Source: Priapulus caudatus (lineage: Eukaryota > Priapulida > Priapulimorpha > Priapulimorphida > Priapulidae). Taken from it: a DNA stretch of 23,163 nt. The notes beneath the pieces are model-generated. The model saw nothing but the letters and a program-made list of their open reading frames with translations. It was not told the DNA's origin and did no database searches. Shown here one piece after another: positions 1 through 21,744 of this stretch (position 1 is its first letter; the number at the start of each line of letters is the position of its first letter). Position numbers and translations under genes: made by a program. The stretch spans positions 22,027-45,189 of the forward strand of contig NW_014578628.1 of NCBI RefSeq assembly GCF_000485595.1. Direction: 5' to 3'.

Positions 1-12
1 AGAGACAGAGAC

Positions 13-73
<61 letters not shown>

Positions 74-80
74 GGGGGGG
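1..80. repeat. GA-rich microsatellite
   Basis: Purine-only run of agagac and gagaga units followed by a G tract. It is CU-rich in the KANSL2 transcript and begins about 40 nt after the donor of the exon at 119-288. Confidence 0.9.
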
Positions 81-118
81 AAGAGGTGTGAAGCATCTGT
101 GCATCGCGACGCATTTAC

Positions 119-288
119 CTGTATCAGATCCGTGTCGATGGCGGTGCTGGGTCCAGCGGACGCGAGAATCGTCAGCGGCATGTTCTCTTGTTTGAACGCG
201 CTGCCGTTCAACAGCCGACGCTGCTCCTCATTGTGCTCGAGATACTGTTGCGAAGCCAGCGACACCAATGGCAGATCCTCGGAGCTTC
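119..288 (-). CDS. KANSL2: KANSL2 coding exon 10, last visible exon
   Basis: Acceptor attgcag and donor gtaaat bound it. It encodes [20 protein letters not shown] and later [17 protein letters not shown], ending in phase 0. The [14 protein letters not shown] part plausibly corresponds to the vertebrate YLSAAELQ region. The final exon or exons are outside the window. Confidence 0.85.
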
Positions 289-2703: not shown

Positions 2704-2746
<43 letters not shown>

Positions 2747-5700: not shown

Positions 5701-5807
5701 TATTTTACTCCATTTCAATACCTGTGTGAATAATTGCAAAACAGTCCTTCGATCGGTCCTTTAGGTTTTGGTCTTTGGAGACTGATGGCAATTTTCTGCT
5801 TAAACAT
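119..5807 (-). CDS. KANSL2: KANSL2, NSL complex subunit 2 (10 coding exons, 3' end outside window)
   Basis: KANSL2 is a nuclear scaffold subunit of the NSL complex, which contains the acetyltransferase KAT8/MOF and acts on histone H4 at active promoters. Ten exons join in frame: 5722-5807, 4720-4872, 4083-4288, 3514-3628, 2850-3013, 2372-2518, 2027-2128, 1320-1477, 759-846 and 119-288. Every junction is GT/AG and the phases agree throughout, giving 463 residues. Four C-C-C-H zinc modules are visible: C24/C31/C42/H45, C57/C68/C82/H85, C302/C311/C322/H325 and C338/C345/C358/H361. Near-identity to the vertebrate protein is seen in [34 protein letters not shown] and [16 protein letters not shown]. 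Vertebrate KANSL2 is about 490 residues, so only a short C-terminus should be missing; exon 119-288 ends at a good donor, so at least one more exon lies to the left. The product is an ordinary housekeeping chromatin protein and shows no break. Confidence 0.95.
289..758 (-). other. KANSL2 intron, no further content
   Basis: Intron between the exons at 759-846 and 119-288. I see no conserved reading frame or repeat in it. Confidence 0.7.
759..846 (-). CDS. KANSL2: KANSL2 coding exon 9, charged linker
   Basis: Acceptor cggcag and donor gttagt bound it. It encodes a short hydrophilic Asp/Glu/Lys segment ([16 protein letters not shown]). It is weakly conserved, and is assigned because its phases (0 in, 1 out) fit both neighbours exactly. 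Confidence 0.8.
1320..1477 (-). CDS. KANSL2: KANSL2 coding exon 8, fourth zinc module
   Basis: Acceptor gttcag and donor gtgagt bound it. It encodes [20 protein letters not shown] and then [16 protein letters not shown], with C338, C345, C358 and H361. It ends in phase 0 after EEAS. Confidence 0.93.
1478..2026 (-). other. KANSL2 intron, no further content
   Basis: AT-rich intron sequence between the two downstream zinc-module exons. The shorter intron at 847-1319 is likewise without recognisable features. Confidence 0.7.
2027..2128 (-). CDS. KANSL2: KANSL2 coding exon 7, third zinc module
   Basis: Acceptor gcgcag and donor gtatcc bound it. It encodes [18 protein letters not shown] and then TSFCQR; the His of the module (H325) is completed across the splice. 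Confidence 0.92.
2372..2518 (-). CDS. KANSL2: KANSL2 coding exon 6
   Basis: Acceptor ggctag and donor gtacgc bound it. It encodes [19 protein letters not shown] and then [14 protein letters not shown], matching the vertebrate Arg/Tyr-rich segment that ends in EALLHRQ-KERR. Confidence 0.92.
2584..2785. repeat. 200-bp GA-rich purine tract
   Basis: Nearly pure purine on the plus strand (gagaga, ggga, gaaag units). In the KANSL2 transcript it is a long CU tract that starts about 65 nt after the donor of the exon at 2850-3013. It reads open in several frames only because of the simple repeat; it is not a gene. Confidence 0.9.
2850..3013 (-). CDS. KANSL2: KANSL2 coding exon 5, helical core
   Basis: Acceptor gttcag and donor gtacgt bound it. 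It encodes [12 protein letters not shown], then [18 protein letters not shown] and a Lys/Arg-rich helix. This long amphipathic helix is close to identical across animals and probably makes protein contacts in the complex (inference). Confidence 0.95.
3199..3325. repeat. Degenerate minisatellite with ataaaggaca units
   Basis: The pattern cacctNtatagaa ... ataaaggaca occurs twice, interrupted by a poly-C run at 3250-3260. It lies in the intron between exons 3514-3628 and 2850-3013. Confidence 0.5.
3514..3628 (-). CDS. KANSL2: KANSL2 coding exon 4, acidic segment
   Basis: Acceptor tttgcag and donor gtacga bound it. It encodes an acidic Ser/Glu run followed by [20 protein letters not shown] and EDPLK, which aligns with the conserved WRGD segment of vertebrate KANSL2. 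Confidence 0.95.
3835..3965 (+). repeat. Dispersed repeat, copy 1
   Basis: It shares gctt/actttttaacNgcacatttN, gataNatatgctac and a following ggcagNcta block with 5098-5235 in the same orientation. The copies are diverged. It is in a KANSL2 intron. Confidence 0.5.
4083..4288 (-). CDS. KANSL2: KANSL2 coding exon 3
   Basis: It begins after gagcag with YCAEH, which completes the second zinc module (C82, H85). It continues through a basic, poorly conserved linker ending in SAASRIL, and the donor is gtacgt. The join gives DG-YC, two residues shorter than the vertebrate protein at the same point. Confidence 0.9.
4337..4422. repeat. 12-bp tandem repeat, about 7 copies
   Basis: Perfect repeats of acagacacagtc. 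In the transcript the unit is gactgtgtctgt, and the array ends about 48 nt before the acceptor at 4289, within or next to the branch-point zone. Confidence 0.95.
4720..4872 (-). CDS. KANSL2: KANSL2 coding exon 2, zinc module core
   Basis: Acceptor tggcag precedes it and donor gtgggt follows. It encodes [15 protein letters not shown] and then [14 protein letters not shown] up to SDKRDG. It holds most of the first two C-C-C-H modules and is the most conserved exon of the gene. Confidence 0.95.
5098..5235 (+). repeat. Dispersed repeat, copy 2
   Basis: Second diverged copy of the sequence at 3835-3965, same orientation, beginning around tgctttttaacggcacattt. Confidence 0.5.
5440..5546. repeat. 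21-bp tandem repeat, 5 copies
   Basis: Five essentially identical units built on gtacaggagggcatacc. The unit is a multiple of 3 and has no stop in some frames on both strands, so it mimics a repeat protein. It sits in the first coding intron of KANSL2. Confidence 0.95.
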
Positions 5808-5838
5808 TTTGGCCCGTGAACAGACAATAGCTTCCTTC
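5722..5838 (-). CDS. KANSL2: KANSL2 first clear coding exon
   Basis: The exon follows a good acceptor (ttttcag). ATG at 5805-5807 starts [17 protein letters not shown] and leads into the first zinc module (CNYSHR). It ends at 5722 with donor gtattg, in phase 2. Bases 5808-5838 lie upstream of this ATG and are open in the same frame, so translation could begin in an earlier exon. I chose this ATG because its position before the first Cys resembles the vertebrate start, about 20-30 residues upstream. Confidence 0.85.
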
Positions 5839-7319
5839 CTGAAAAACAACAACATTTGTATGATGCCATGTTTTAAGATATTAAATACTTAGTATGAATA
5901 CAATGGGTGTGGGGTGGACTCAGGGTTAGCCTTACTTATAAGCTAAGGTAGCATTAGGTTTATACTAGGTAATATTTCTCTGGTAATACACATACGACAG
6001 AAATAGCAAAAAAGTTAAATACCCGCTCCCTACCACCCACAACAGGGTGCAAAATTAACGGGAGTCCGGAGTCAAATACTACCTGATTTACTGCCGGACT
6101 CCCTAATTTGACATATGCAGGCGTCCGTGTGACTCCCTGAAAATTCTGCCATACTACCTAGTTCGTTCCGGAGCACGGCCTCGTGGAAATACCGTATTTT
6201 TTCAGCTAATATCCAAAGAAAATTTGACAGACGTGTAACCGCACGAATCTTAAAAATAAGCACATGCGTTATTGTTAATATCTTGAACCTCAGACTGCGG
6301 ACTCCTTCATTTTGCTGCGGACTCCCTCTTTTTGAGGGTAGGGAGTCCGTTGGACTCCCCCGTGTTCAAAAGTTCATTTCTCCCCCTGCACAATATACCT
6401 AGCCACTAGCAGTATAACGATGCATCAAACTATCGATTAATTGCATTAGTTTTCTTCAATATTAATGCTCGACAGCAGAGTAAAACATGTCTTTGAATGT
6501 TTTTAAATACACATGCCATTGCCTCTAGATTTGGCTCCGAATTTCTGGTTGCACTAGTGAGAAGACTTGATAATTTTAAAATTATAAATTTAATTACAGA
6601 TTCGATCCACAGCGTTGATCTGTTGATTTGATCAAATTGTCTCTGTCTTCGTTACAGTCCCGTGGACTTTTGAAGACTGATATTTATTGGGTTATGAGGT
6701 TATAAATTCTTTTGAAAACCAATCTAAACCAATGTTTTACTCTACCACGAAAGCTCTTGCACTTCTGCAGGAAATACGGGGCATAGGAGGGGGAGTGGGA
6801 AGGTGGCACAGTTTATTAGATTGACTGTGTACAGATCGCAACACACTGACCTGAACTATATCGGCGACAAAGCGGGACCACTGTACAGTGACAGTGTATT
6901 ATGTTGTGCGTTCGATTTGCTTCCCCAAGTTAACCTGGGTCTACTCGGGCCAGCCACAAATATACATTCGATTTGGCAGTCACGTGGTATTTTTGCATTA
7001 CCCGGGTGAGGCCGAAGTAACCCGCTAGCCGAGCCGCTCACTTGGGGAAGTATCCCACAATTCATTGCAACGAAATGGCGACGATATATCAGTGCGGGAA
7101 TTGCAGTGCAGGAAGTGCGGGACTCGGTAACAAACAGATTGAATGTTTCCCTCTCCAGGCGGAAATGAGATTTAAAATCAGTGGGTGAATAGCTTTGAAT
7201 GGTGACCTCAACATAATTTTCGATCCGAGGAACCTTGTCTCATCTGCTATGCCTATGCCTAGATGGCTCTCTTCAAGCAGTAATGAAGCACGACTGTCGA
7301 TGACTGCGTGTGTTTGCTT
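5839..7319. other. KANSL2 upstream or 5' intron sequence
   Basis: No supported exon. Around 6050-6390 an inverted-repeat segment rich in gggagtccg / cggactccc may be an old MITE beginning cagggtgc. At 6920-7051 an 11-bp inverted repeat (cttccccaagt) flanks a GC-richer patch. Confidence 0.5.
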
Positions 7320-8690
7320 ATTTGCTATTTACTACCAGTCTTAAGTTAATGTTTCTCTACTCTCTTTCACCTATTATTGCCGACAATTTCCTATAAATGC
7401 TGTCCAAATGCTCATCTGCAACACACGCTGGCCGCCGCACGCTAGCTGCTGCACACTGACACATAAATATATAGCAGGTAGGAAAGCGTGCTGCCAAAAT
7501 TCGCTCGACGCTCGCTTGATTTCATACGAATACAACACAAACATTCAACCATTCTACTCCATCTTTGTTTCTATTTGAAGAACAGTGTTCACTTTTTATA
7601 AACACATACTGTCTGTGTTCGTAACCGAGCTGTGTCACGCGAAATCGCGTTCGCTCCTGTTGCGCAGTTTATGTAAATGGCTGCAAGTACAGGGCTATAG
7701 ACGGCGCACTGCATTTTGGGAAACTACCACGCTGCTTTCCAACTCCCGTATGAGCCTCGTCAAAGCCCCAGTAGAGCGTTGCAAAAACGTTGCAGCGTTG
7801 CAGCGCAAAAATGAGGTCACGAAGAGCGCCGGTGGGTGTTTCCTGATTCCGACAGCAATTTACATAAACTGCGCGACGGGAGCGAACGCGAGAATTTCGT
7901 CAGGCTTTGTGTGATTTCACGTGACACAGCTCGGTTACAAACACAGACAGTATGTTTTTATAACAAGTGAACACTGTTCTTCAAATAGAAACAAAGATGG
8001 AGTAGAATGGTTGAATATTTGTGTTGTATTCGTATGAAATCAAGCGAGCGTCGAGCGAATTTTGGCAGCACGCTTTCCCACCTGCTATTAGCTCTAGTAT
8101 CTATAGCCCGGGTACGGTTGCCGCAGGCGTACGCGGGCTATAGTTACTAGAGCTGAGAGGGTCTATGTCCCCCAGGGTACTGCCGGAACGTACCCTGGTA
8201 CCAGAGCATATAAATCAACGTGATTTATATGCTCTGCTGGTACTATCTAATAGTAATATGCCGGACCGTACCTCGCCTACTCCACTAACGAGTCTAGGGA
8301 GTTGCCTACGCCTACTCCCTAACCCTAACCATATCAGATAGTTACCAAGGTACATTCCGGTATACCGGACCGTACCCAGGGTACGTTCCGGCAGTATCCT
8401 GGGGGACATAGACCCTATGAGTATGACTATGAGCGTTACTAGAGCTAACCTGCTTAGTTCAAGGATAGAGATAATGTCCAGTACGGTGATTGGATAGGAT
8501 GATGTTAGTTGATAAGATAGGACTGGACATCTTCTCTATCCCTGAGCCACCTGCTTTATGTGTCAGTGTGCAGCAGCTAGCGTGCAGTGTACTTGTGGGT
8601 TGCAGATGAGCATTTGACCGGCATTTACAGGTGATTATAGGCGAAATAGAATATAGAAACATTAAGACTTTGATAGTGAATACATTTCGT
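7320..8690. mobile_element. Large inverted-repeat element (MITE or foldback type)
   Basis: The left arm (about 7320-7688) is inversely repeated on the right (about 7850-8690). The best part pairs 7481-7639 with 7920-8078 with few mismatches, for example aaagcgtgctgcc against ggcagcacgcttt. The central spacer is about 160 bp. I see no transposase. The right arm is split by a 461-bp insertion at 8087-8547 and resumes at ttatgtgtcagtgtgcag. The outer ends are fuzzy. Confidence 0.85.
8087..8547. mobile_element. Insertion nested in the inverted-repeat element, with 8-bp target duplication
   Basis: It is flanked by the direct repeat cacctgct (8079-8086 and 8548-8555), exactly where pairing of the outer element is interrupted. 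It is itself built of hairpins: 8157-8197 with 8376-8416 (41 nt, one mismatch), a perfect 15-bp palindrome at 8203-8235, and 8463-8482 with 8522-8541. An 8-bp duplication fits hAT-like elements, but no coding sequence is present. Confidence 0.75.
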
Positions 8691-9674: not shown

Positions 9675-9781
9675 TGATTACTATAAAATTTACACTGCCT
9701 CTACGAGAGTGCAGCATCACCACCGTATTGCTATCGATAATAACACCAGTTGCTACCGGCAACCACACTAGAGGCACGTGA
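9675..9781 (+). repeat. 105-bp dispersed repeat, copy in the COQ2 3' UTR
   Basis: About 95% identical, in the same orientation, to 14567-14674. Shared landmarks are gattactataaaattta, gcagcatcaccaccgta, ttgctatcgataat and ttgctaccggcaacc. Confidence 0.9.
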
Positions 9782-9999: not shown

Positions 10000-10203
10000 T
10001 CAGCTCTCATCGCTCGGTGCCTCAGAACCCGTATCTGTCTCGCCTCTCGGTGCCTCGGAACCCGCGTCTGTCTCGTCGTCTGCTGTCTCAGGCTTCAGCA
10101 GGTTGCCGGCGACGATGCCAGCGAAGAGGATGAGGCCGAGGCGTATGTTGGAACGGAAGCTTTCCCAGCAGCTGTCAACATCGTTGATGTCCAGCCACCA
10201 CAC
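10000..10203 (-). CDS. COQ2: COQ2 exon 7, last exon and acidic tail
   Basis: Acceptor gttgcag leads into [19 protein letters not shown] and then [18 protein letters not shown], matching the last helix of COQ2. The stop TGA is at 10000-10002. The final 25 or so residues are an acidic tail with a near-duplicate 11-residue unit ([22 protein letters not shown]). This tail is absent from vertebrate COQ2 and probably arose by a 33-bp tandem duplication. Confidence 0.93.
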   Translation of the reverse strand: MWWLDINDVDSCWESFRSNIRLGLILFAGIVAGNLLKPETADDETDAGSEAPRGETDTGSEAPSDES

Positions 10204-13200
10204 CTGCAACAAGACATGATACAGTGACATGGTAGAGTGACATGATACACTGATAGCCTACAGTGACACACAACAGTGACATGGTACAGCAATATGCTAC
10301 AGTGACACACAGCAGTGACATGGTACAGTGACGTGCTACACCAAGACCCTGCAGTGACATGGCACAGCGACATGATATACTGCCACCAGGAGTGGCATAA
10401 CATATTATAACACTACTGCTGACACCCTACAGTGACACACTACAGTGACATGCTACTGTGTTACACTTCAATATCATAAACAGTGTCACGGGAACAGTTT
10501 ATAAGTGATCTAGATGGTTTATATATTAGAATGCTACGCTCACTACGACACGGCATGTCACGTGGACGACACCGCACGCTCGGCTACAATACAGCATGCC
10601 ACTTGTGGACGACACGCACACGCTCACTACAACACAGCATGCACGTTGATGACACAGCACGCTCGCTCGACCCGCATGCCCACACGTTGACGACCACAGC
10701 ACCGCTCGCTCGACACCGCATGCCACGGTGACGCACACAGCATGTGTTTGCCACGGACATGGCCCACCCTCACAATGACATGACACGCCACAGTTGACGA
10801 TACGACACCGAGCATGCGTACCTGTTCGCTACTCGTGAGCGGCGGCGTGAGGGCGAGGGAGCACTGTAAACGGGCCACGTCTGCTCGCCCACATGTAGCC
10901 CGCCGCGCCGAGCCCGCCAATCACATGAGCGCCCCGAAGCCGCCTCAACCACTGATCCATGCACGTGTTGTCGGCAACAGCCCCAGCCCGTAGACTTGAC
11001 CGCCGGATGAGCACTGTCGTTCCTCCTTGCCTTCTGCGAACGAGAACACGCGGGCGCGCGCGCGTAGGTTCAGCGTAGCGGCCACACGAGGGGAACGCGG
11101 CGGTAAGGTCAGCGTGCGGCCAGCACGCGGGAACGCACGCAGGGGTAGGTCAGCTGTGCGGCATTACGAGGGAACGCGTGGCTTAGGTCATCGTGCGGGC
11201 CACACGCGGGACGGCGCGGGTACCGGTCAGCGTGCGGCACACGCGGGAACGCGCGCGGTTAGCGTCAGCGTGCGGCCAGCACGCGGAACCGCGCGCAGTC
11301 GTCAGCGTGCGCCATACGAGGGAACGCGCGCGTAGGTCAGCGTGCGTCCCATACGCGGAACGCGTGCGTTAGGTCAGCGTGCGGCCATACGGCCGGGAAG
11401 CGCGCCGTAGGTCAGCGTGCGGCCTCATACGAGGGCAACGCGGCGCGGCATACGTGTATAGGTCAGCGTGCCGGCACACGGCGAACGCGTGGGCGTAGGT
11501 CAGCGTGCGGCCACACGCCTGGGGGAACGGCGCGCATGCGGGTAGGTCAGCAGTGCGCGCCATACGCGGAACGATCAGACCGCGGGTAGGTCAGCGTGCG
11601 GCCATACGAGGGAACGGCCGCGCGGTAGCGTCAGCGTGCGGCCCACACGCTGGGGATACGCGTGGGTAGGTCAGCGTCGCGGACCAAACAGATGGCGGAA
11701 CGAGCGCGGTAGGTCAGTGTGCGGCCATACTGAGGGGACCGACGCTGGCGGTAGGTCAGCGTGCGGCCATACGCAGTGGTCTGGAACGCGCGCGTAGGTC
11801 AGCGTCGGCCACACGCCCCCGGGAGACAGCGCGGTTAGTGGTGCAGCGTGCGGCCAACGAGAACGCGCGCGGGCTCTAGCCGTCAGCGTGCGGCCACACG
11901 CGGCCGAACGCGTGCGGTAGGTCAGCGTGCGGGCACACGCCGGGAACGAGCTCGGGGTAGGACGTGTCGCAGCGTGCGGCCACACGCGGAACCCCGCGCG
12001 CGTAGGTCAGCGTGCGGGCCATACGAGGGAACCGGCGGGCGCGGTGGTCAGCGTGGCGCCTACGAGGGAACGCGCGCATGGGGCATTGGAGGCATTCAGG
12101 GTGAAGAGACTCGCATACCGGAGGGAAGCCGCGACGCGATGGATGGATGGAGCTGGCTAGGTCAGCGTTGCAGTGGCGAATAGAGGGAACGCGGCGGTAG
12201 TCAGCCGTGCGGCATCGAGGGAACCGCGGGCCGTTAGGTCAGCGTGCCGGCATACGAGATGACGGGCCGCGCGGCGTTAGGTCAGCTCGGCCATACGAGG
12301 AAGCGCTCGGGGGTCAGCCGTGCGGCCATTACGAGGGAAACGCGGCAGGTGGATGGCGGATGGTAGGTCAGGCGTGCCAGGGTGGGCCATACGCAGCGGA
12401 ACGCGTGGCCCCGGTAGGTCAGGCGTGCGGCCACACGGGAACGCGCGCGGGTAGGTCAGCGTGCGGCCACACGTCGCGGGGTGAACGCGCGGTGGTAGGT
12501 CAGCGTGCGCCACACGCGGGGAACGCGCGCGGTTAGGGTCAGCGTGCGGCCAACACGCGGGAACGCGCGCGGTAGTCAGCGTGCAGGTGCCACGACGGGG
12601 AACGCCCCCCCGGCGGTACGTCAGCATGCGGGCCATTAACTCGCGGGGGAACCGCGTGCTGGTTAGGGTCAGCGTGCGGCCATACGCCGGGACGCACGCG
12701 GACGTTAGGTTCAGCGGTTGGGCCATACGAGGGAGACCCGCGCGGCATGGCATGGTATGGGTGCAGCGTGCAGGTGGCAGCACGCATGGTCGGGAACGCG
12801 TGGCTCGGGTAGATCAGGTGCGGCCATGACTGCGGGAACCGCGCGCGGGTAGTATGGATGGGCTCAGCCGTGCGGCCATACGCCAGGGAAGCGCGCGCTG
12901 GGTAGGTCAGCTTGCGGCCATACGAGGGAACGCGCGCGGTTAGGTCAGCGTCGGCCACACGCGGAACGCGTGGGGTAGGTTCAGCGTGCGGCCATACGAA
13001 TGGGGGAACGAGGCGCGGCTAGGTCATTGTGCGCCATACGAGGGAAACCGCGCGCCGTAGATGGGGTCAGCGTGATTGGGGCCATACGCGGGGATAACAT
13101 TTGCGCGGCGGTAGTCACGCGTGTCGGCCACACGCGTGGAATGCGCGCGGCATGGGGTAGTGGGTCGCGATGTGGCGCCATACGCTGCGACGCGCACGCT

Positions 13201-14923
13201 GGGGATAGGTCACGCGTGCGGCCTATAGCGAGGGAACGCGCGAAGCGTTAGTCAGCGTGCGGCCACACGCAGGGAACGCGCGCGGATAGGTCAGCGATGC
13301 GGCCATACGAGGGAACGCGGCGGTAGGTCAGCGTTGCCGGACCCACGCCGGGAACGGCGCGCATGGGATGTAGGTCAGCGTGGCGGGCCACACGGGGAAC
13401 CACGGCGCGGCGGATGGTTAGGCGGTCAGCGTTCGCGGCCCATACGAGGGACCGGCGCGGATGGTAGGTCAGGTGGCGGCCACACGCGGGAACGCGCGCG
13501 GTAAGGTCAGGTGGCGGCCATACGAGGAACGCCTGCGCACTGGGTAGGTCAGCGTGCGGCACACGCTATGAATGGGCGAACGCGTGCCGGTATGCGTCAG
13601 CGTGCGGCCACACAAAAGCGGAACCTCCAGCTGCGGGGTTTAGCGTTCAGCGTGACTGGCCACACGCCGGAACGCCGCGGTAGGTCGCGTGCGGCCATAC
13701 GCAGGGAACGCGCGCCGGCAGGTAGGCGTGCGGCCATACGCGGGAAGCACATGGCGGGTAGGGTCAGCGTTGCGGCCATACGAGGGACGAGCGCGGTAGC
13801 GTCAGCGTGCGGCCATTACGAGGAACGCGCGCGGTATAGGTGTCAGCGTGCGGCCATAACGAGGGAACGCCGCGCGGGAAATATATGGAATGGTTAGTCA
13901 GCGTGCACTCGATACGAGTGGAACGCGCCGCATGGGGCTCCGAGGTCATTGCGTGCGGGCCATACGAGGGAACGCGCGCGGCAAGGTATACAGCGTTGCT
14001 GGCCAACGGCGGGAACCGCGCACGGTGAGCGGTCAGCGTGCGCCACCACGCGGGGAACCGCGCGCGGATGGATAGGTGCGAGCGTGCGGACATACGAGGG
14101 AACGCGCGCGGGATAGGTTCAGCGTGCGCGCCATTTACGCCGGGAACGCGCCGGGGTAGGTCAGCGTTGCGCGCCCATTACGAGGGACGCGCGCGGTAGG
14201 TCAGCGTGCGCCATACGAGGGAAACGCGCGCGGTAGGTCAGCGTGCGGCCATACGATGGGAACGGCGCGCCGGTAGCGTCAGCGTGCGGCCATACGCGCG
14301 GGAACCGCGCGCGGTAGGTCAGCTGCTGGCCAATACGAGGAACGCGCGCGGTTAGGTCAGCGCTGCGGCCACCAGGGACGACAGGATGGCCCGAGTGAGG
14401 ACTCGGTTCAGAGGTATAATATAGATCTATATTATACACTATCTATATTATACACTCCCGACTCATTAGTACACGATCACATGGTAGGTCAGAGACAAGA
14501 GTAGTTAGCACACGGTAGGTCAGCAACAATATACTACACATTAAAAATGATTTTATACCGCACACCGATTACTATAAAATTTATACTGCCTCTATGAGAG
14601 ATTGCAGCATCACCACCGTATTGCTATCGATAATGACACCAGTTGCTACCGGCAACCACACTAGAGACAAGTGACTCATTAGTATATGATCGGTTACCAT
14701 TAGAAGCTGTGCTCCTGGGGGGGGGGCACTCCATATATATTGCATGGTAGGTATGTGCCGCGGGAGAGACACCCATTTTCAACCCTAAACTTCCATTCCA
14801 ATGCATCGCATTTTTAAGAATATCTCGTTCCAAAGCATCACAAGTTTAGTTACCATGCAGATCTTACATTTTCCCCGTTCCGGAGACCCTAGTTGTGTCC
14901 CTGTTAGTGTGCGTGCGTCTGTG

Positions 14924-14955
<32 letters not shown>

Positions 14956-17900
14956 TGCGTGTGCGTGCGTTCATTTCTGTCTGGGTCATGTTTTTCTCTC
15001 CTGTACATAATACAACAATTATTGGTTCAAGTGCTACAGCATAGATTTTAAAGCAAATCACAGTTTCCCCACAGTTCCGGAGACCCCCTCTTTTAAACAT
15101 GTCCAGTTCCACAGCATTGCATTTCAACGAAATCCTAGTTCCGGAGACCCCCATTTTCGAAAATAGCCAGTTCCAGAGCATCCCACATTCAACAGACATA
15201 AGTTCCAGAGACCCACATTTTCAGGTCTGAGTTAGTTCCAGAGCCCCCGATTTTTGACTTCTCAGTGGCACATACCTACCATAATGTGGGGTGAGTGCCC
15301 CCCCCCCCTGTGCTCAGACTTAGACGACTGCTGATACGTTTCAGTGATGTGTGTGTAAACTAGGAACGTGTGCTGATCAAGACAACAGCTATCAGCATCG
15401 TGAGTGCTACCGACAATAAACTCAACTACGGCTATGCCGGGGAAAAAAAACAAATTCAACTTAAAAGAATAGACTTTTGCAGAGGAGGGTAAGGATCATG
15501 CTGGTAGGATGGGTGGTAGCAGATAGGCGGGAAAGGAGATAGATGTGCTGGTAAAGAAAACGACTAAATGTAATTATATGAAGATGGAGGATGAAGGAAA
15601 AGAACTGGGAGGATGCAGCAGCAGAGGTTGGAGAGGCAGAGGACGTTGAGCATGAAGGAAAATAATTGGGAGGATGCAGAGGTTAAGGAGGAGGCAGATG
15701 CAGATGATGAGGACGAGGTGATGGTGCAGAAGTTACGTATGCGAAAGCAGGAAGATTTCGAACGAGCTTCTAACGATAGGCTGTACCTGGTGGGCGTAGA
15801 TTGTGTCATAGATCATTGTCCACGCAAAGCAGCCAGCGTAGAGGGGCAGGACAACGCCGAAGCTTGGACACCCCGTCACAGCTACCCAGCCCAGCAGCGA
15901 ACCGAAGTTAAATGTCAGCCCTGGCCGAGAACAAGCGAACAGTGGCAGCAGCGTGCATTCGCGACCAGAACGGTGTACGCCAGCGAACATTTGTCTCAGG
16001 AGGACCAGCGTACCGCGTGTGAACGATGCGCGCGCACGTGCGTGTACGCCGGCTCCCCCTGGAGGCTGCTGCTCGCCGTGCGTCTACAGCACGTGTTCGT
16101 AGCGCATCGCCACCCGCCGCCACGGCGATCACACCACACGCGTCTAGTCGCACAGCTGCCGCTCAGTGTGCCGTGCTTACGTCTTACACCGGCCGCGTAA
16201 CAACGTGACGACACACACCGCAGACGTCAAGGGCATATAGTCGACTGAAGATGAAGCCGAAGGTCAAAGTTATAGGTCGCTGTGTTCCACGACGAGGTTT
16301 CGCGTACGTCGCACGAGTGCTTATCAGGAGGAAGGCGAGAACTTGTCGTTCTCACACGTGCTGGCTTTTAGCCCACAAACAGGGCACCAGCAGCAACAGC
16401 AGCAGTGCCAGCAGCAACAGCAACAGCTGCAGTAGCAGAAGCGCTACCAACAACGGCAGAACGACTCGCAATGACATATCACGGTAATATCCTCGACCAG
16501 ATTGCAATAGGAGGTGCAATCAGCTAGTCCCTCGTGTCCTGAATCACATACACTGCCTCCCTCTATGATCACCTTTGCCCTCAGCTGATGCTGTCTTGGT
16601 CACCTTTTAAAGACCTTACCCTCTGGGTTCCCTTGCCCAGCCCCCCATGACAGCCACAGTTCACCCCACCAGATACAAGATTCTACGGACAACCGGCAAG
16701 CAGAGAAGCAAAGGAAGCTAGTGCAAGCTTGGACATTGGCTGATTATTGCAAGTGGAATGTAGAAATCTTTCTAATAGACATGTGTGAAAGGCTAGGACA
16801 AAAACAGGACGAATAAAAATAAAAAGATTACGAGAAAGAGTACAGCAAAAGCTGCGTTTTTAAGACTATTTACAGTCAAGTAATGTTCATGTGTTGATGG
16901 AATTTTGTAGTTTTAATTCATTGGAAAGAATAATGCCAGATTAGACGTAATGTAATGCAGAATTTTACATCATTTGAACCTTTACTTGAATATATAAATT
17001 CCCTGTCTACTAGTACTATACAAAAAATACTGAACTATTGCTAGCAGGATTCTCTAACATTCATGGACAAACTACACTTTCACATTTACTATTTGGTTTG
17101 TAGAAGATTTTAGAATTTGTCTCATACAAACATCCTCCACTAGAATGGACGCGCTACTCTAACATTCAGGGAGCCTCGAACACGACCAAAATGATGGTTG
17201 TATTCCTTTATACGTTAACCTTTGTTTTAATATTCTATAAGCCGGTTATAATGAATATCCCACTACTTATTAGGTACAATAAACTATTTGCTTTTAAAGA
17301 AACTACTGCACAAACATGCAGAAAAAAACACAAGAACATGATTAGCTGAAATTTAGTAAAGAACCAAATATGGGTCTTTGCATAATTCGAAACAGTATTC
17401 AATACCAGTATCGTTATTGTTGAAGTATTAGATAGAGTTGATATATAGATAATTCTCAAGTTAGGCCGTAAATGTGAAAAACTAAAAGTAATTACTTGAA
17501 ATAAGGAATAACTAATAAATTAATCGACTAACTAATTCCATCATATAATATTCGAGAAAGTAGGAAAATCATTCATATGATAGAGAACTGTACAAAAACA
17601 CTACGAAGACAAAAGAGATACAAATCAGAATAGTACCCAAAAATAGAAAGTGAAATAGTATCATCAAAGAGACGACTCTAGCCATCTATACACGTAGACT
17701 AACACCACTGACCAGGATCGGAAACATACATTCTACCGCTGATGCACTGGACCCCGGACCTGTATTAGCAATGTCTCCAAAACACACCGATGCCTCACCT
17801 GATGCGAATATATAGTGTCGTATATAATTGTCCAAGAAATGCACGACAAGTAGATGAGGGTAGGCGTCACCGTATTTAGCGAGCCGTGCACAGCTGCCCA

Positions 17901-20900
17901 GCTGATAAGAACGCCCCAGTTCAGGGAGAGACCTGCAGGAGAGCGCAAAAACCGGGCTGAGAACATTACCGCGCTGCTACCTGTGCGCGCGGTCGAGCGG
18001 ACATCATCGTGCTGCCAGCGCCACCTGCAGGCCGCAAGAGCGACCACTCTTTCGCGCAGACGAAGGCTTGACGTGGCGCCACCTGCCTGCCATTCACTGC
18101 CACACATATATGTACATATACGCTGCTGCCCCCTGCCAGCAGCATGGCCGACGAACGCTGCATGTACTACGTTGCCTGGGAAGCGCAGTGTTTCACCAGT
18201 GATGGCGGCCATGCAGCGACCCTGCGAGATGGGCTGTTACCGGTACGATAACAGAGATCGCCCCCCACTTGCCGCAACACGTAATAATGGTGCAGGGAAC
18301 GACACACAGCGTGCTATAACTTTGACCTTCGGTGACCCTCGTGACACGATTACCTCTATTATCGGGCAACATTGCTATTAGGCGCAACCAAGTTTCTTCA
18401 TGACCACGAGTGCAAAGTTTTGCCTCACAGGCTATACTATACAACATCTGAGCACAATATGATGCTTTGACCAATGGTCTGTACTATATTACACAACATA
18501 CTAGAGTCAGACCTGTGGTCAGCTCTAGAGAATAGTCACCTATAAATGGAATTTTTATTTTTCCCTTCAGGGACCTTCAAAACATTCAAGTTCTATTGTA
18601 TGGTCCAACACTCAGTGCTTTTGCTTTCACATTTACTGCACTCTACCATTTGTAGCATTCGGCACGGTCTCGGCTGTGCTGATATAATGCATGTGCTGGT
18701 ACGACAACTAGTGTGTATTCACCTAAGAATGCCTGAGGCCAGTAGGTAAGCCTCTTCATAACTGGGTAGGTGGCAACCAGAAGCAGAGAACTAGCTCCTA
18801 GCACGATGCTGTAAAATAAAGACAACAAGAAAGAGAGAAGTGAACTTGTGCTACAATCAATCATGTAAGGCAGGGCTTCTCTCTAGCCTTTTAACGCATG
18901 TCGGGTTCGATATATACCTGCGAATTTGTATCTAAAAATGTGTGATATCCCATAAATTCTTCAACATCCCTTAATTGCTTAATCGACATGCCTTCTTTTC
19001 TAGCTCTGTATACATATGACAGTCCCAACACAGTCATGCTGTTTTCACCGCTTTTAAAATGTATGTCTATGAACTGATATTTTTATCTGTGTATTGCAGC
19101 TGCTTGTGCCACAAATAATTAACTGTAATTAGCAATCACGAATTAATTGCTAATGATTGTCCGACGTGCTTAGAGGAATTCCTGGCTGACAACATATAAT
19201 TTGGCTGGCCACCTAGCAGTAACTCAGGTAACTATATGCAAGCATATTATTCTTTCTTATAGTATAATACTCTGGCCTAGACGTTAAATTCCAGAAATGG
19301 ACATGAAACCCAAAATTAAAAGAACATTATATTGTTTTATATGTTTGCAAGGTGGTGGGGGGCGCAGAGTTCTACGTTCCACTATTTCTCACTGAGCAGG
19401 GATAACATGATGGTACTGTGAATGTGGCAATGCTTTTGAAAATATGGCAGAGGCATACCTTACACAATGACCCTACACTTGATACCTTTAATATTTTTAC
19501 TAACGACTATTTGATGGTAGTCAGTAGTCAACAGTCTATGTTATACCTATAGTTGTTAAGCTGTAGAAGAATGGCTAGAGCAGCTGTCAGGTTCAGACCA
19601 AGGAATGCGAGTGCCTGTACGTTCGTCAGCTCTCCTGACGCCAGAGGGCGCCCCTTTGTGCGTGCAACCTAAAAAAAGCCAAGAGTGAAACTGGGTGTAG
19701 AACGCAAGCGGTACAAGACATGCGAGTAGGATACAACACACCAGAGAAAACTCGAGTACGAAATGCACATCGCCCTTACAGTTCAGCGAACGCACGATCA
19801 ATATTTATTTTCTTCGCGATTACACTTTACAGGCTGTCGTCTCAGCTGTCACAAGGATTGACAATTCACAACATTGACGAAAATCGCAAAGACACGTGCG
19901 GTCGCACAGCGACGACCTGACGAAGGCGTTCCCCCTACACTATATACCTTCCGGTCAATGTCCTGGTCCCACATATCGTTCACGATGCAGCCGGCCCCGC
20001 GCATGATGAGAGATCCGGCTCCGAACAGGACGAGGAGGTAGAGATCGGGCAACTGTCCCGGAGCCGCAGCCAGGGCAATGCTCCACGCACACGGCCAGTA
20101 CAGCAGCCACGTACCTGCACGGAGTCACGATTAAAGTCGCCGGAACGATACAAGTAAGGATAAGATGAAAATAAAGATATATATAATTATATATATTAAA
20201 GGACATTATAACTTTTATTCTTACATATAATTATGTATCTTTATTTTATTATAAGTAAGGATACGAGTCGCATGAACAGGAAAACCTGCGCCTCACACAG
20301 TGAGTTGGAACTGTTTATGAAGCGTGAGCAAACGATCGTCACGTGGCAACATACCTGGCATCTTTTAAATTTGGTAGCAACTTGTAAAAAATATGGAATA
20401 ACAAGTATAATGAAACAAATTCGAGCATGATGATAGGGAAAGATAATTATATAGAGGGTGAGACGGCATTTTTATGAATGTAGGGCAGACCTAGGGGGGT
20501 GTCCAGGGGTCCGGATTTTTTTTAGAGGGTCCTTTAATTTCAAAGTGCACTAAAAAATTTCATCACAATTTTTTTTAGGGCTAGTTTTTCTGATAAAGAT
20601 TTACTTATATATATAAAGAGCTTTTTCCTGCTTAATTTTTCTGGTGTTTCAAAAGCTGCCAAAGGCCACTTAGGGGGGGTTGGGGGACCTCCCCCAAGAA
20701 AAAAAAAATTGGTGCATTCTGAGGATCCGGTCCCCCGGATGCCCCGCGGACCCCCCTTTGCCAATTTCTAGGTTTTTGTAACGAATATATATATATACCC
20801 CCCTAAGTGGCCTTTGGCAGCTTTTGAAACACCAGAAAAATTAAGCAGGAAAAAGTGCCCTTTATTTCTTCCTGGACACCCCGCTTTCAAAAATCCTGGA

Positions 20901-21744
20901 TCCGCCCCTGGAATGTACAAGTAGATCAACACTGGAATTAGGAACAATAGAGTAATATGGCTCCAATGATGCCAACAAAAGCCACGCTGCACACCGCTAA
21001 GGCCGATGAAAGTTGATTTCATGGTTCTCGTCAGGCATTGTTGAGATTTTGATGAGGGATTTAGATCAACATTCATCTTTCATATACAAACCAATAGAAC
21101 TTAGTGAGGGTATCGGGTCTTGTACATATGCAAAATAAGATTGAAAAATGTCATAACTTCTTTGTTGACAGTTTTTATTCAAATTTTTACTGTTTGTCTT
21201 CCATACATGTAGTGCTGACTGTAGATTGTTGATTTTTTGAGGCGGGAATTTCATATGGGGACTTTTTGATGCGGGAATTTCGTCAGCGATGAGTGTTGAA
21301 CTTTTTTGGTGCGGGAGTAAAATTTGATGCGGGCGCTGACGAGAACCATGACATCAACTTTCATCGGCCTAATCTCTCACCTGTCGGCGAATGCAATCGT
21401 ATCAAGCGCAGGTATGGTTGCCACGCCGACGGAGCAGCATCCACCATCGCCTGCGCCGACAATCGCACCTTTCTCGCGTTACTTGTAGAGTTCTGTGAGA
21501 CCTGCACTAGCATCGGCGTCGCCCGCCTATGTCGGTCAACGCCGCTCCGGTGGCAGTGCGAACCGGGGCAAGCGATCCTTGACCACTGAGCACCGACGCA
21601 GTCATGCTGCTGTGTACGATCGGGGAAGCAGACGGCCAGGCTGTGATATTTACGCGTTAAGGACATGTTCACGCCACCGAGCGTGCGACACAAGGGAACT
21701 CTGACGCATGCACGCCAGAGCGGAGTCTGTTTCAAGCAGAACAT
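10000..21744 (-). CDS. COQ2: COQ2, 4-hydroxybenzoate polyprenyltransferase, with alternative exons 5e/5a
   Basis: COQ2 is a mitochondrial inner-membrane UbiA-family prenyltransferase. It attaches the polyprenyl tail to 4-hydroxybenzoate for ubiquinone; in rhodoquinone-making animals an alternative form is thought to use 3-hydroxyanthranilate. Exons: 21381-21744, 19948-20114, 19547-19668, 18723-18808, then either 17799-17932 or 15787-15920, then 10822-11033 and 10000-10203. All have GT/AG junctions with matching phases except 10822-11033, which is frameshifted. The first Asp-rich motif N167-D168-xx-D171-xxx-D175 is intact, as is the YDTIY-HQ start of the second motif. A basic N-terminal presequence and an in-frame TAA upstream support the start at 21744. 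The expected length is about 420 residues. The acidic C-terminal tail is lineage-specific. Confidence 0.95.
10210..10480. repeat. Degenerate cagtgacatg tandem repeat
   Basis: Many irregular units of tacagtgacatg and cagtgacacac. It fills the 5'-distal half of the COQ2 intron between exons 6 and 7 and contains no reading frame of interest. Confidence 0.8.
10540..10815. repeat. Degenerate minisatellite of about 40-46 bp
   Basis: Roughly six units built on cagcatgccacgttgacgac and cacgctcgctcgac. With the preceding repeat it makes COQ2 intron 6 almost entirely repetitive. Confidence 0.75.
10822..11033 (-). CDS. COQ2: COQ2 exon 6, frameshifted in this sequence
   Basis: Acceptor ttcgcag and donor gtacgc are intact, but the 212-nt length is not a multiple of 3 although both neighbours demand phase 0 at each end. 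Family matches move between frames: VKST, then a Leu-Gly-Leu-like step and [19 protein letters not shown], then [10 protein letters not shown], and [13 protein letters not shown] before the donor. At least three frame changes are needed. The exon abuts the GC-rich array, whose units show the same scattered one-base gains and losses, so consensus errors are more likely than a pseudogene; all other exons are intact. Confidence 0.75.
11036..14375. repeat. GC-rich satellite-like array, about 37-bp unit, roughly 90 copies
   Basis: Each unit reads approximately ggtaggtcagcgtgcggcc, then atacgagggaa or acacgcgggaa, then cgcgcgc. Copies differ mainly by one-base insertions and deletions and by small atgg insertions, so the exact count and sequence are uncertain. 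Every unit carries AGGTCA and GCGTG. It starts about 3 bp outside COQ2 exon 6 and lies in the intron between the alternative exons and exon 6. Open frames across it on both strands are a by-product of GC content. Confidence 0.95.
14376..14566. repeat. Decayed flank of the array with AT palindrome
   Basis: Two stray ggtaggtcag pieces remain after the array. A palindromic tatagatctatattatacac segment sits at about 14415-14456, and gactcattagta occurs near 14460 and again near 14672. Confidence 0.6.
14567..14674 (+). repeat. 105-bp dispersed repeat, intronic copy
   Basis: Direct-orientation partner of 9675-9781. The two copies bracket the array and the last two COQ2 exons. Confidence 0.9.
14715..15307. 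mobile_element. 593-bp TIR element with 8-bp target duplication
   Basis: Direct repeats ctgtgctc at 14707-14714 and 15308-15315 flank it. The ends are inverted: a long G run, gcactcc and ggtaggtatgtgcc on the left against ggcacatacctacc, gagtgcc and a C run on the right. The inside is a degenerate tandem of agttccggagacccc and agttccagagcatc, interrupted by a GT/GCGT microsatellite at about 14905-14970. No transposase; a non-autonomous element. Confidence 0.8.
15560..15786 (-). promoter_or_regulatory. COQ2: CU-rich intron segment just downstream of exon 5a
   Basis: Purine-rich on the plus strand, hence pyrimidine-rich in the transcript, beginning within about 60 nt of the exon 5a donor. It contains a duplicated 25-bp block (tgggaggatgcag near 15605 and 15668). 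Such tracts can bind PTB-type or TIA1-type regulators. The plus-strand frame through it (a Glu/Asp-rich stretch) runs over exon 5a antisense and is not judged a gene. Confidence 0.35.
15787..15920 (-). CDS. COQ2: COQ2 alternative exon 5a (ubiquinone-type)
   Basis: Acceptor cggccag and donor gtacag bound 134 nt with the same phases as the upstream copy. It encodes [17 protein letters not shown] through [14 protein letters not shown], which is closer to vertebrate COQ2 ([24 protein letters not shown]). Phe250 and Ala289 are the standard ubiquinone-type residues. A Phe replaces the usual Trp at residue 252, a position the other copy keeps. Confidence 0.93.
16384..16470 (-). promoter_or_regulatory. 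COQ2: CUG/UGUU-rich intron segment upstream of exon 5a
   Basis: The plus strand reads agcagcaacagcagcagtgc and similar; the transcript therefore carries clustered CUGCUG, UGCU and GUUGUUG. Clusters of YGCY and UGUU are binding sites for MBNL and CELF/Bruno splicing regulators in animals. It lies between the two alternative exons, about 460 nt before exon 5a. Confidence 0.35.
16500..17798 (-). other. Intron between the alternative exons, AT-rich part
   Basis: No exon or mobile element recognised. A short direct repeat ctctaacattca occurs near 17050 and 17157. Confidence 0.6.
17799..17932 (-). CDS. COQ2: COQ2 alternative exon 5e (rhodoquinone-type)
   Basis: Acceptor ctcctgcag and donor gtgagg bound 134 nt, phase 1 in and phase 0 out. 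It encodes [17 protein letters not shown] through [14 protein letters not shown]. Relative to the downstream copy it has Leu instead of Phe at residue 250 and Ser instead of Ala at residue 289. These are 39 residues apart, the same spacing as the Phe204/Ala243 pair that, as I recall, becomes Leu/Ser in the rhodoquinone form of C. elegans COQ-2. The reading frame is clean and the splice sites are strong, so decay is unlikely. Assignment to the rhodoquinone form is inferred from those residues. Confidence 0.88.
17933..18722 (-). other. COQ2 intron between exon 4 and exon 5e
   Basis: The part next to exon 5e (17933-18240) is GC-rich and has long open frames on both strands, but none resembles a known protein. 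I treat it as intron. The rest shows no features. Confidence 0.55.
18723..18808 (-). CDS. COQ2: COQ2 exon 4
   Basis: Acceptor tttacag and donor gtgaat bound it. It encodes [20 protein letters not shown] and then LTYWPQAFL. The YP-MKR-T-WPQ signature is diagnostic for the family. It ends in phase 1, which both alternative exon 5 copies accept. Confidence 0.95.
18809..19546 (-). other. COQ2 intron between exons 3 and 4
   Basis: AT-rich. It has a small palindrome at about 19126-19152 (ttagcaat ... attgctaa) and is otherwise without recognisable content. Confidence 0.6.
19547..19668 (-). CDS. COQ2: COQ2 exon 3
   Basis: Acceptor tttttttag and donor gtataa bound it. It encodes [16 protein letters not shown] and then a hydrophobic helix ending LQLNNY. 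The R-T-x-x-RPLA-G pattern follows the first Asp-rich motif in all UbiA-type enzymes. Confidence 0.95.
19948..20114 (-). CDS. COQ2: COQ2 exon 2, first Asp-rich motif
   Basis: Acceptor gtgcag and donor gtatat bound it. It encodes [20 protein letters not shown], a membrane helix, and [20 protein letters not shown]167, D168, D171 and D175 are the Mg-diphosphate-binding residues of the UbiA family. Confidence 0.96.
20152..20263. mobile_element. AT-rich foldback insertion flanked by aagtaaggata
   Basis: The 11-bp direct repeat aagtaaggata at 20152-20162 and 20253-20263 brackets a palindromic segment in which aaaataaagata...ataattata pairs with its inverse. It looks like a small insertion with target duplication, about 40 bp upstream of COQ2 exon 2. 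Confidence 0.5.
20484..20910. mobile_element. hAT-like MITE with strong hairpin
   Basis: The right end, read on the minus strand, is caggggcggatccagg, a terminus seen in hAT-type elements. gaatgtag (20476-20483) and gaatgtac (20911-20918) resemble an 8-bp target duplication. Inside, 20621-20678 is an essentially perfect inverted copy of 20798-20855 (58 bp). It sits in COQ2 intron 1. Confidence 0.7.
21001..21369. mobile_element. Inverted-repeat element beside the COQ2 exon 1 donor
   Basis: The 34-bp arms at 21001-21034 (ggccgatgaaagttgat...) and 21336-21369 differ at one base. The interior repeats the phrase gatgcggga or ggcggga. The right arm ends about 10 nt from the exon 1 splice donor. 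Confidence 0.8.
21381..21744 (-). CDS. COQ2: COQ2 exon 1, mitochondrial presequence
   Basis: ATG at 21742-21744 has an in-frame TAA shortly upstream. The first 60 or so residues are rich in Arg, Lys, Leu, Ser and Cys with few acids ([16 protein letters not shown]), as expected of a matrix-targeting signal. The conserved entry follows: [18 protein letters not shown]. The exon ends HSPT plus G at donor gtgaga. Most COQ2 proteins have D-K/R-P-I here, so the HSPT variant is unusual. Confidence 0.92.

What the first reader, a model, noticed from the sequence alone, without database searches (positions are those of the whole stretch)
15787..17932. Mutually exclusive COQ2 exons: a putative ubiquinone/rhodoquinone splice switch
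Seen: two homologous 134-nt exons in tandem, with the same phases, clean frames and good splice sites, each fitting the same slot between exon 4 and exon 6. Established: in nematodes and other helminths coq-2 is spliced with alternative exons, and the coq-2e form is needed for rhodoquinone, the electron carrier used in anaerobic respiration with fumarate reductase. Inference: this animal has the same switch and can make rhodoquinone under low oxygen. The e-like copy lies first in transcript order. If the species is a lophotrochozoan, independent or ancient origin of the exon pair is an open question.
Basis: partly seen in the sequence, partly recalled or inferred. Interest (0 to 1): 0.92.

Follow-up and report, generated by a model that had tools for sequence, protein, structure and literature searches.

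The report
Low-oxygen quinone exon pair in Priapulus
The coenzyme Q gene of the marine mud worm Priapulus caudatus carries the same pair of swappable exons that roundworms use to change from the oxygen-breathing quinone to the low-oxygen one, in an animal phylum where I found no report of it.

Summary
Two 134-nt exons (5e, 17799-17932; 5a, 15787-15920; minus strand) fill one COQ2 slot with the same phase and AG/GT borders. They carry the published diagnostic residues: Leu/Ser in 5e, Phe/Ala in 5a. The organism is Priapulus caudatus (Priapulida, Ecdysozoa), not a lophotrochozoan: NCBI's X1 isoform equals window exons 1-2-3-5e-5a-7 letter for letter. That model reads 5e in the wrong frame; I retrieved no correct e-form. 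Using both exons gives a stop at once; skipping both shifts the frame. The order, e before a, matches 13 of 13 retrieved nematode and mollusc models that hold both. Exon trees (LG+G4) reject separate origins in nematodes, molluscs and Priapulus taken together, but not an independent origin in Priapulus alone. Kynureninase exon matches and one likely TDO exon are in the genome. Splicing and rhodoquinone were not testable. The kind of switch is known (Tan et al. 2020); the phylum is new as far as I searched, and bears on whether the switch is ancestral to protostomes. Exon 6 is frameshifted here, probably by unpolished gap-fill.

The parts
21381..21744 (-). COQ2 exon 1 (from the ATG of NCBI's model; N-terminal leader and start of the UbiA domain), 364 nt coding
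   Evidence: translation identical to P. caudatus NCBI models
19948..20114 (-). COQ2 exon 2 (167 nt), contains NDMWDQDID motif
   Evidence: TIGR01474 hit of the joined protein, 260.3 bits against a 275.45-bit cut-off for a protein that lacks exons 6-7
19547..19668 (-). COQ2 exon 3 (122 nt)
18723..18808 (-). COQ2 exon 4 (86 nt)
   Evidence: present in NCBI X3, skipped in X1
17799..17932 (-). Exon 5e, e-type (rhodoquinone-type) alternative exon, 134 nt, Leu and Ser at the diagnostic positions
15787..15920 (-). Exon 5a, a-type (ubiquinone-type) alternative exon, 134 nt, Phe and Ala at the diagnostic positions
10822..11033 (-). COQ2 exon 6, homologous but with 12 frameshifts in the alignment to a relative (likely unpolished long-read gap-fill)
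   Evidence: frameshift-tolerant alignment; three broken frames
10000..10203 (-). COQ2 exon 7 with stop codon
   Evidence: translation [16 protein letters not shown]...SDES*
11046..14371 (.). GC-rich tandem repeats, unit about 36-44 nt, with many indels, inside the 5a-6 intron
   Evidence: several rows within this span

Best explanation
This is the one COQ2 (4-hydroxybenzoate polyprenyltransferase) locus that I found in Priapulus caudatus, with the tandem pair of alternative exons e and a. SHOWN: two homologous exons in one slot, same phase and length, e upstream of a, each with its class's diagnostic residues. SHOWN BY TRANSLATION: using both exons gives a stop at the second codon of 5a, and using neither shifts the frame, so only one-of-two transcripts can encode a full enzyme; the 134-nt length (not a multiple of 3) makes the choice exclusive at the protein level, with nonsense-mediated decay the likely way of clearing the rest (inferred). 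INFERRED: the a-form uses 4-hydroxybenzoate and makes ubiquinone; the e-form takes 3-hydroxyanthranilate from the kynurenine pathway and starts rhodoquinone synthesis, so that complex I and fumarate reduction can run without oxygen, which suits a burrower of oxygen-poor mud. INFERRED: the pair is homologous to that of nematodes and spiralians, hence present in the protostome ancestor.
For: Exact exons and residues. C. elegans 6a and 6e are also 134 nt, and Leu204/Ser243 versus Phe204/Ala243 define e and a in Tan et al. 2020 (PMC7434440; part 1 of the Results, the regulation section and passages read). Editing those two residues into C. elegans COQ-2a let worms survive where RQ is needed (PMC8659336; passages). 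Class match beyond own-gene kinship: oyster e is 60% identical to 5e and 47% to 5a; P0003 e 67% and 50%; Ascaris e 50% and 40%; oyster a 69% to 5a and 47% to 5e. Profile log-odds of 5e +14.1, inside the leave-one-out range of 33 e exons (3.0 to 77.5) and far from 38 a exons (-81.8 to -36.3). Order e then a in 13 of 13 retrieved models holding both, from 12 species (12 models, P0014). Exon tree: 34 e against 39 a on one branch, 88/90.6, bootstrap not settled. Joint separate origins rejected under LG+G4. Double inclusion stops at codon 293; skipping both gives a stop at codon 256 when exon 4 is joined to exon 7. Kynureninase: 4 collinear matches on one contig; one TDO exon with a DEHLFIITHQ motif (that this is a TDO motif is recalled).
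Against: No RNA or lipid data. Leaving out the two diagnostic columns, 5e scores only +1.1 (e range -10.0 to 67.9; a range -69.9 to -24.4). With nematode-only profiles it is -1.1 (other non-nematode e exons -17.5 to 33.1; a exons of non-nematodes -68.4 to -27.2) and -10.4 without those columns. 5e keeps an a-type Trp where 32 of 33 other e exons do not. An independent origin in Priapulus alone is not rejected (AU 0.455; 0.459 and 0.365). NCBI's models never use 5e in its proper frame. The Alvinella paper finds the second residue not clearly diagnostic (PMC12403961, passages). RQ is now reported in mammals (PMC13174367, passages), which Tan et al. found to lack an e exon, so e exons may not be the only route. 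KMO was not searched. The kynureninase and TDO matches are each under the curated cut-off, and 3 of the 4 kynureninase pieces and the TDO piece count stop codons inside, as matches running past exon ends would.
Confidence: 0.82

Rival explanations
1. Independent duplication in the priapulid line: 5e arose from a local copy of 5a and converged on the e residues under selection for 3-hydroxyanthranilate.
For: Holding only the two Priapulus exons together is not rejected (AU 0.455; 0.459 and 0.365). 5e keeps a-like Trp and Ile in its 3' half. Tan et al. cite mrp-1 as a case of repeated independent exon duplication (passage).
Against: Same length, phase, order and four e-type states (Leu, Val, Ser before Trp, Ser before His-Gln); third codon positions agree in only 15 of 42 codons, so no recent copy; the three e exons tried match 5e better than 5a; a joint independent origin across phyla is rejected under LG+G4.
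Confidence: 0.2
2. 5e is real and used but does not serve rhodoquinone: a second ubiquinone form with another tissue or substrate role.
For: No chemical data on RQ in priapulids; no paper in the library holds both words.
Against: The two residues, edited into COQ-2a, gave RQ-dependent survival in C. elegans (passages); kynureninase matches and a TDO exon are in the genome; long-term anaerobiosis of the priapulid Halicryptus is in the title of a 1990 paper seen in a reference list only.
Confidence: 0.12
3. 5e is an unused relic, or NCBI's X1 (5e and 5a together) is the real product.
For: NCBI's X1 joins exons 3-5e-5a-7 and X3 lacks 5e; neither uses it in frame.
Against: X1 skips exon 4 and exon 6 and reads 5e out of frame, as a predictor might to get past a frameshifted exon 6; 5e keeps good sites, an open frame and class residues although third positions have diverged.
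Confidence: 0.05

Closest known systems
coq-2 exons 6a/6e of C. elegans and other nematodes (Tan et al. 2020, PMC7434440)
   Same: One slot, both exons 134 nt in C. elegans, Leu/Ser against Phe/Ala, e before a in the 11 nematode models with both that I retrieved.
   Different: Priapulus 5e keeps Trp where the nematode e exons in my set have another residue. Splicing and the need of the e exon for RQ are shown in C. elegans, not here.
COQ2 e/a exons of molluscs and annelids (Tan et al. 2020; Alvinella pompejana and siboglinids, PMC12403961)
   Same: Same slot, order (2 of 2 mollusc models with both exons) and diagnostic residues in most.
   Different: The mollusc e exons in my set encode 44 residues, Priapulus 5e 45. 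Priapulida is ecdysozoan. I retrieved no annelid e exon.
NCBI P. caudatus COQ2-like isoforms X1 and X3 (P0002, P0001)
   Same: Same locus, exons identical.
   Different: X1 reads 5e in the wrong frame and next to 5a; X3 lacks 5e and starts 5a at an inner acceptor; both lack exon 6.

Membership tests
coq-2 a/e mutually exclusive exon pair | Two homologous exons in tandem in one COQ2 slot, same phase and length | tested here: met
   134 nt each as in C. elegans
coq-2 a/e mutually exclusive exon pair | e exon with Leu and Ser, a exon with Phe and Ala at the positions of C. elegans 204 and 243 | tested here: met
coq-2 a/e mutually exclusive exon pair | e exon groups with e exons of other phyla rather than with its own a exon | tested here: inconclusive
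   free tree puts all 34 e against all 39 a (88/90.6), pairwise identities agree, but Priapulus e+a together is not rejected
coq-2 a/e mutually exclusive exon pair | Only one of the two exons gives a full-length protein | tested here: met
   both: stop at codon 293; neither: frame lost, stop at codon 256 when joined to exon 7; not tested through the broken exon 6
coq-2 a/e mutually exclusive exon pair | RNA junctions show one-of-two use | not testable with these tools
   no RNA reads on hand
Rhodoquinone-making animal | Kynurenine pathway that can supply 3-hydroxyanthranilate | tested here: inconclusive
   kynureninase 4 collinear matches, one TDO exon match at E 2.1e-4 beside a run of N; KMO not searched; all under curated cut-offs
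Rhodoquinone-making animal | Rhodoquinone present in tissue | not testable with these tools
   no paper in the library holds 'priapul' and 'rhodoquinone'

The most novel reading that the evidence does not exclude
The UQ/RQ splice switch of COQ2 arose once, before the split of Ecdysozoa and Spiralia, and is an inherited low-oxygen adaptation of the protostome ancestor. Priapulids (and perhaps their kin, the loriciferans of anoxic basins) still use it to make rhodoquinone, and arthropods lost it.
Probability: 0.6. Interest if true: 0.78.

Novelty: new member of a known kind. Interest (0 to 1): 0.58.

Why it matters
Tan et al. wrote that their data could not tell whether rhodoquinone synthesis is ancestral with many losses or arose separately in helminths, annelids and molluscs. 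An e exon in a priapulid puts the pair in a second, non-nematode ecdysozoan phylum; a nemertean (Lineus) and a probable brachiopod e exon add spiralian lineages. With the joint rejection of separate origins, the ancestral reading becomes testable by ordinary means: LC-MS and RNA-seq on a worm that can be collected and kept without oxygen. It also predicts where to look next: kinorhynchs and loriciferans.

Tried and rejected
Lophotrochozoan origin: rejected, the window is Priapulus caudatus. Assembly duplication of one exon: rejected, third codon positions agree in only 15 of 42 codons. Steric exclusion by a very short intron: rejected, 5e and 5a are 1878 nt apart. Splicing-motif counts (TGCATG, GCATG, CTGCTG, TGTGTG and CACACA in three introns, single-base shuffles) gave nothing I would interpret: for example one TGCATG in each intron against 0.3, 0.5 and 0.9 in shuffles, 5 CTGCTG against 0.5 upstream of 5a, and 9 CACACA against 1.0 downstream of it, where there is a simple repeat. 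Rfam search at gathering threshold: no match.

Trees. Free-tree log-likelihoods differ by about 8 (all columns) and 6 (reduced) between the two runs, and the one-split tree scored above the free one, so these searches had not converged. Joint three-phylum separate origin: AU 0.0006, SH 0.008; without the three class columns AU 0.0099, SH 0.076. One origin in nematodes+Priapulus and another in molluscs: AU 1.7e-6, SH 0.013; without those columns AU 0.010, SH 0.063. Four-phylum version: SH 0.002 and an AU of about 1e-104 that I do not take at face value; without those columns AU 0.0037, SH 0.0197; its brachiopod pair combines P0003 with Lingula, two different animals. Nematode-only independent origin: AU 0.025, SH 0.148; without those columns AU 0.117, SH 0.282. 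Single-phylum tests with the mixture model rejected nothing: Priapulus 0.455, nematodes 0.204, molluscs 0.126.

Rows. 65 of 174 retrieved proteins were chosen by hand for names and spread; with the two window exons they gave 79 exon rows, and 6 were dropped before the trees (5 repeats of a species or near-copies, and a truncated Dracunculus e exon). e and a were typed by a pattern that uses columns 3 and 7, so those two columns separate the classes by construction. The backbone tree used 37 proteins and the window.
Full report
WHAT IS THERE. The minus strand holds a COQ2 gene with coding exons at 21744-21381, 20114-19948, 19668-19547, 18808-18723, then 17932-17799 (5e), 15920-15787 (5a), about 11033-10822 (exon 6) and 10203-10000 (exon 7 with stop). 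5e and 5a are each 134 nt with AG and GT at the borders, share 74 of 134 bases, and translate in the slot frame without stops. The 5a peptide finds 5e in the window at E = 5e-13; the next match is E = 0.74. Agreement by codon position is 25, 32 and 15 of 42 codons: protein-level constraint with third positions close to saturation.

WHICH ANIMAL. The first protein search put Priapulus caudatus first, COQ2-like isoforms X3 (90% identity) and X1 (81%), with every other listed protein at 65% or less (120 of 1723 listed). Exons 1-2-3-5e-5a-7 of the window translate to X1 letter for letter, and exons 1-2-3-4, an inner part of 5a and 7 to X3. The window lies in a 385-Mb assembly of 2952 contigs. Priapulus is Priapulida, Scalidophora, Ecdysozoa.

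ANNOTATION. X1 skips exon 4, joins 5e to 5a, and so reads 5e in the wrong frame; X3 has no 5e; both lack exon 6. No third hit named Priapulus appeared among the 120 listed hits, the 37 or the 40, so the correct e-form is unannotated as far as these lists go; members hidden in 90% clusters (X3 stands for 4) and fragments outside the length limits were not seen. Exon 6 is homologous (score 74; best of 30 shuffles -5; 33 of 66 residues) but needs 12 frameshifts, and the tandem repeats beside it (within 11046-14371, units of about 36-44 nt) are full of indels. I read this stretch as gap-fill with unpolished long reads; that is inference.

CLASS OF EACH EXON. Tan et al. 2020 (part 1 of the Results, the regulation section and passages read) define e by Leu204 and Ser243 and a by Phe204 and Ala243, with both C. 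elegans exons 134 nt. 5e has Leu and Ser; 5a has Phe and Ala. Oyster e (Ostrea): 60% to 5e, 47% to 5a. Ascaris e: 50% and 40%. P0003 e: 67% and 50%. Oyster a (Crassostrea): 69% to 5a and 47% to 5e (these four relatives were tried). Profile log-odds from 33 other e and 38 other a exons: 5e +14.1, 5a -31.0; leave-one-out e 3.0 to 77.5, a -81.8 to -36.3. Without the two diagnostic columns 5e is +1.1 (e -10.0 to 67.9; a -69.9 to -24.4). With nematode-only profiles it is -1.1 (other non-nematode e exons -17.5 to 33.1), and -10.4 without those columns; with non-nematode profiles +16.5 and +4.4. So the class call is clear on the known residues and only mild beyond them.

MORE CLASS POSITIONS. At column 10, before the Trp of 'GW', a exons have Gly in 38 of 38, while e exons have Ala or Ser in 32 of 33; Priapulus 5e has Ser. 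At column 34 a exons have Trp in 38 of 38 and e exons Tyr or His in 30 of 33; Priapulus 5e and Lineus e keep Trp. The Ser/Ala position is Ser in 32 of 33 e and Ala in 36 of 38 a. Two filarial e exons (Loa, Onchocerca) have Ser at the Leu position. The Alvinella paper (passages) already reports that the second residue is not cleanly diagnostic in annelids.

ORDER. Of 174 retrieved proteins, 13 carry both exons by my pattern, probably as wrongly fused annotations; all 13 have e first, then a: 11 nematode models from 10 species and 2 mollusc models (12; P0014). The window has the same order.

HOW THE CHOICE IS MADE EXCLUSIVE. 134 is not a multiple of 3. Using both exons gives a stop at codon 293, the second codon of 5a in the shifted frame. 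Using neither gives a stop at codon 256 when exon 4 is joined to exon 7; exon 6 is too broken here to read through. Introns of 790, 1878 and 4753 nt speak against steric exclusion, and both exons have AG/GT borders. So reading frame plus decay of wrong forms, with an unknown splicing regulator, is the likeliest mechanism (inferred).

ONE ORIGIN OR SEVERAL. On 73 exon rows and 45 columns the best tree has all 34 e on one side of a branch and all 39 a on the other, support 88/90.6, with the bootstrap not settled. Holding e and a of one phylum together was not rejected for any of the three phyla tried with the mixture model: Priapulus p 0.455, nematodes 0.204, molluscs 0.126. Holding them together in several phyla at once was rejected under LG+G4 on 51 rows: three phyla AU 0.0006 (SH 0.008), four phyla SH 0.002, nematodes+Priapulus against molluscs AU 1.7e-6 (SH 0.013); without the three class columns AU 0.0099, 0.0037 and 0.010 (SH 0.076, 0.0197 and 0.063). 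One split was never rejected (AU 0.617, 0.334, 0.448, 0.642). An independent Priapulus pair was not rejected either (0.459, 0.365). Few columns, unconverged searches, a simpler model than and possible convergence limit this.

OTHER PHYLA SEEN. Lineus longissimus (Nemertea) has an e-type exon (P0063). P0003, unnamed, has an e exon, and its backbone is sister to Lingula (100/98, the only brachiopod in that tree), so it is probably a brachiopod or near kin. Tan et al. list nematodes, platyhelminths, molluscs and annelids. I found no paper that holds both 'priapul' and 'rhodoquinone', and one search counts no 'priapulid', 'brachiopod' or 'nemertea' in Tan et al. Most subscription journals are not in that library.

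PATHWAY CONTEXT. PF01040 gave three places in the genome: this gene, a MenA/UBIAD1-like gene and a heme O synthase (COX10-like) piece (the animal gene names are recalled). Kynureninase: four collinear matches on contig C127, none over the whole-protein cut-off, three of them with a stop counted inside; the same search also rings in 6 of 14 control genomes. TDO: one match, E 2.1e-4, under the cut-off, with a stop counted inside, next to a run of N; read in frame it ends in DEHLFIITHQ (motif recalled). KMO was not searched; alternative oxidase was asked for but did not complete. Priapulids and anoxia: titles of Oeschger 1990 and Oeschger and Vetter 1992 seen in reference lists only. Loricifera are drawn with Priapulida and Kinorhyncha in a 2010 commentary (figure legend).

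LIMITS. No RNA, no lipids. RQ is now reported in mammals (passages of a preprint), which Tan et al. found to lack an e exon, so the e exon need not be the only route to RQ. That arthropods lost the exon rests only on the a-type arthropod proteins in my lists; no arthropod genome was searched.

VERDICT. The system is known, the phylum is new as far as I could search, and it sharpens an open evolutionary question. New member of a known kind.

Noticed in passing
window 1-5900, minus strand: The next gene downstream has two zf-C3Hc3H domains (PF13891; 2 of 4 pieces tried), as in KANSL2 of the NSL complex (name recalled).
   Followed up: partly
window 11046-14371: GC-rich tandem repeats, unit about 36-44 nt, with very many indels; together with the frameshifted exon 6 they look like unpolished long-read gap-fill.
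   Followed up: partly
window 9705-9781 and 14598-14674: A 77-nt direct repeat, 95% identical, lies on both sides of the noisy stretch, one copy in the 5a-6 intron and one past the coding end of the gene.
   Followed up: no
window 7471-8088, 20621-20855, 8153-8421: Long inverted repeats (176-nt arms 97%, 58-nt arms 100%, 46-nt arms 93%), perhaps MITE-like elements.
   Followed up: no
P0023, P0031 (Loa loa, Onchocerca ochengi): Filarial e exons have Ser, not Leu, at the first diagnostic position (2 of 33 e exons), an exception to the 'invariant' Leu.
   Followed up: no
a/e exon alignment, column 10: A further class position: Gly in 38 of 38 a exons, Ala or Ser in 32 of 33 e exons; a candidate third residue for substrate choice.
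   Followed up: partly
P0063 (Lineus longissimus), P0003 (Lingula's sister in the backbone tree): e-type exons in a nemertean and in a probable brachiopod.
   Followed up: partly
P0128, P0138, P0144, P0152: Unnamed UbiA-family proteins from metagenome-type sources have Ser at the second diagnostic position without the e-type Leu, so Ser alone does not mark an e form.
   Followed up: no
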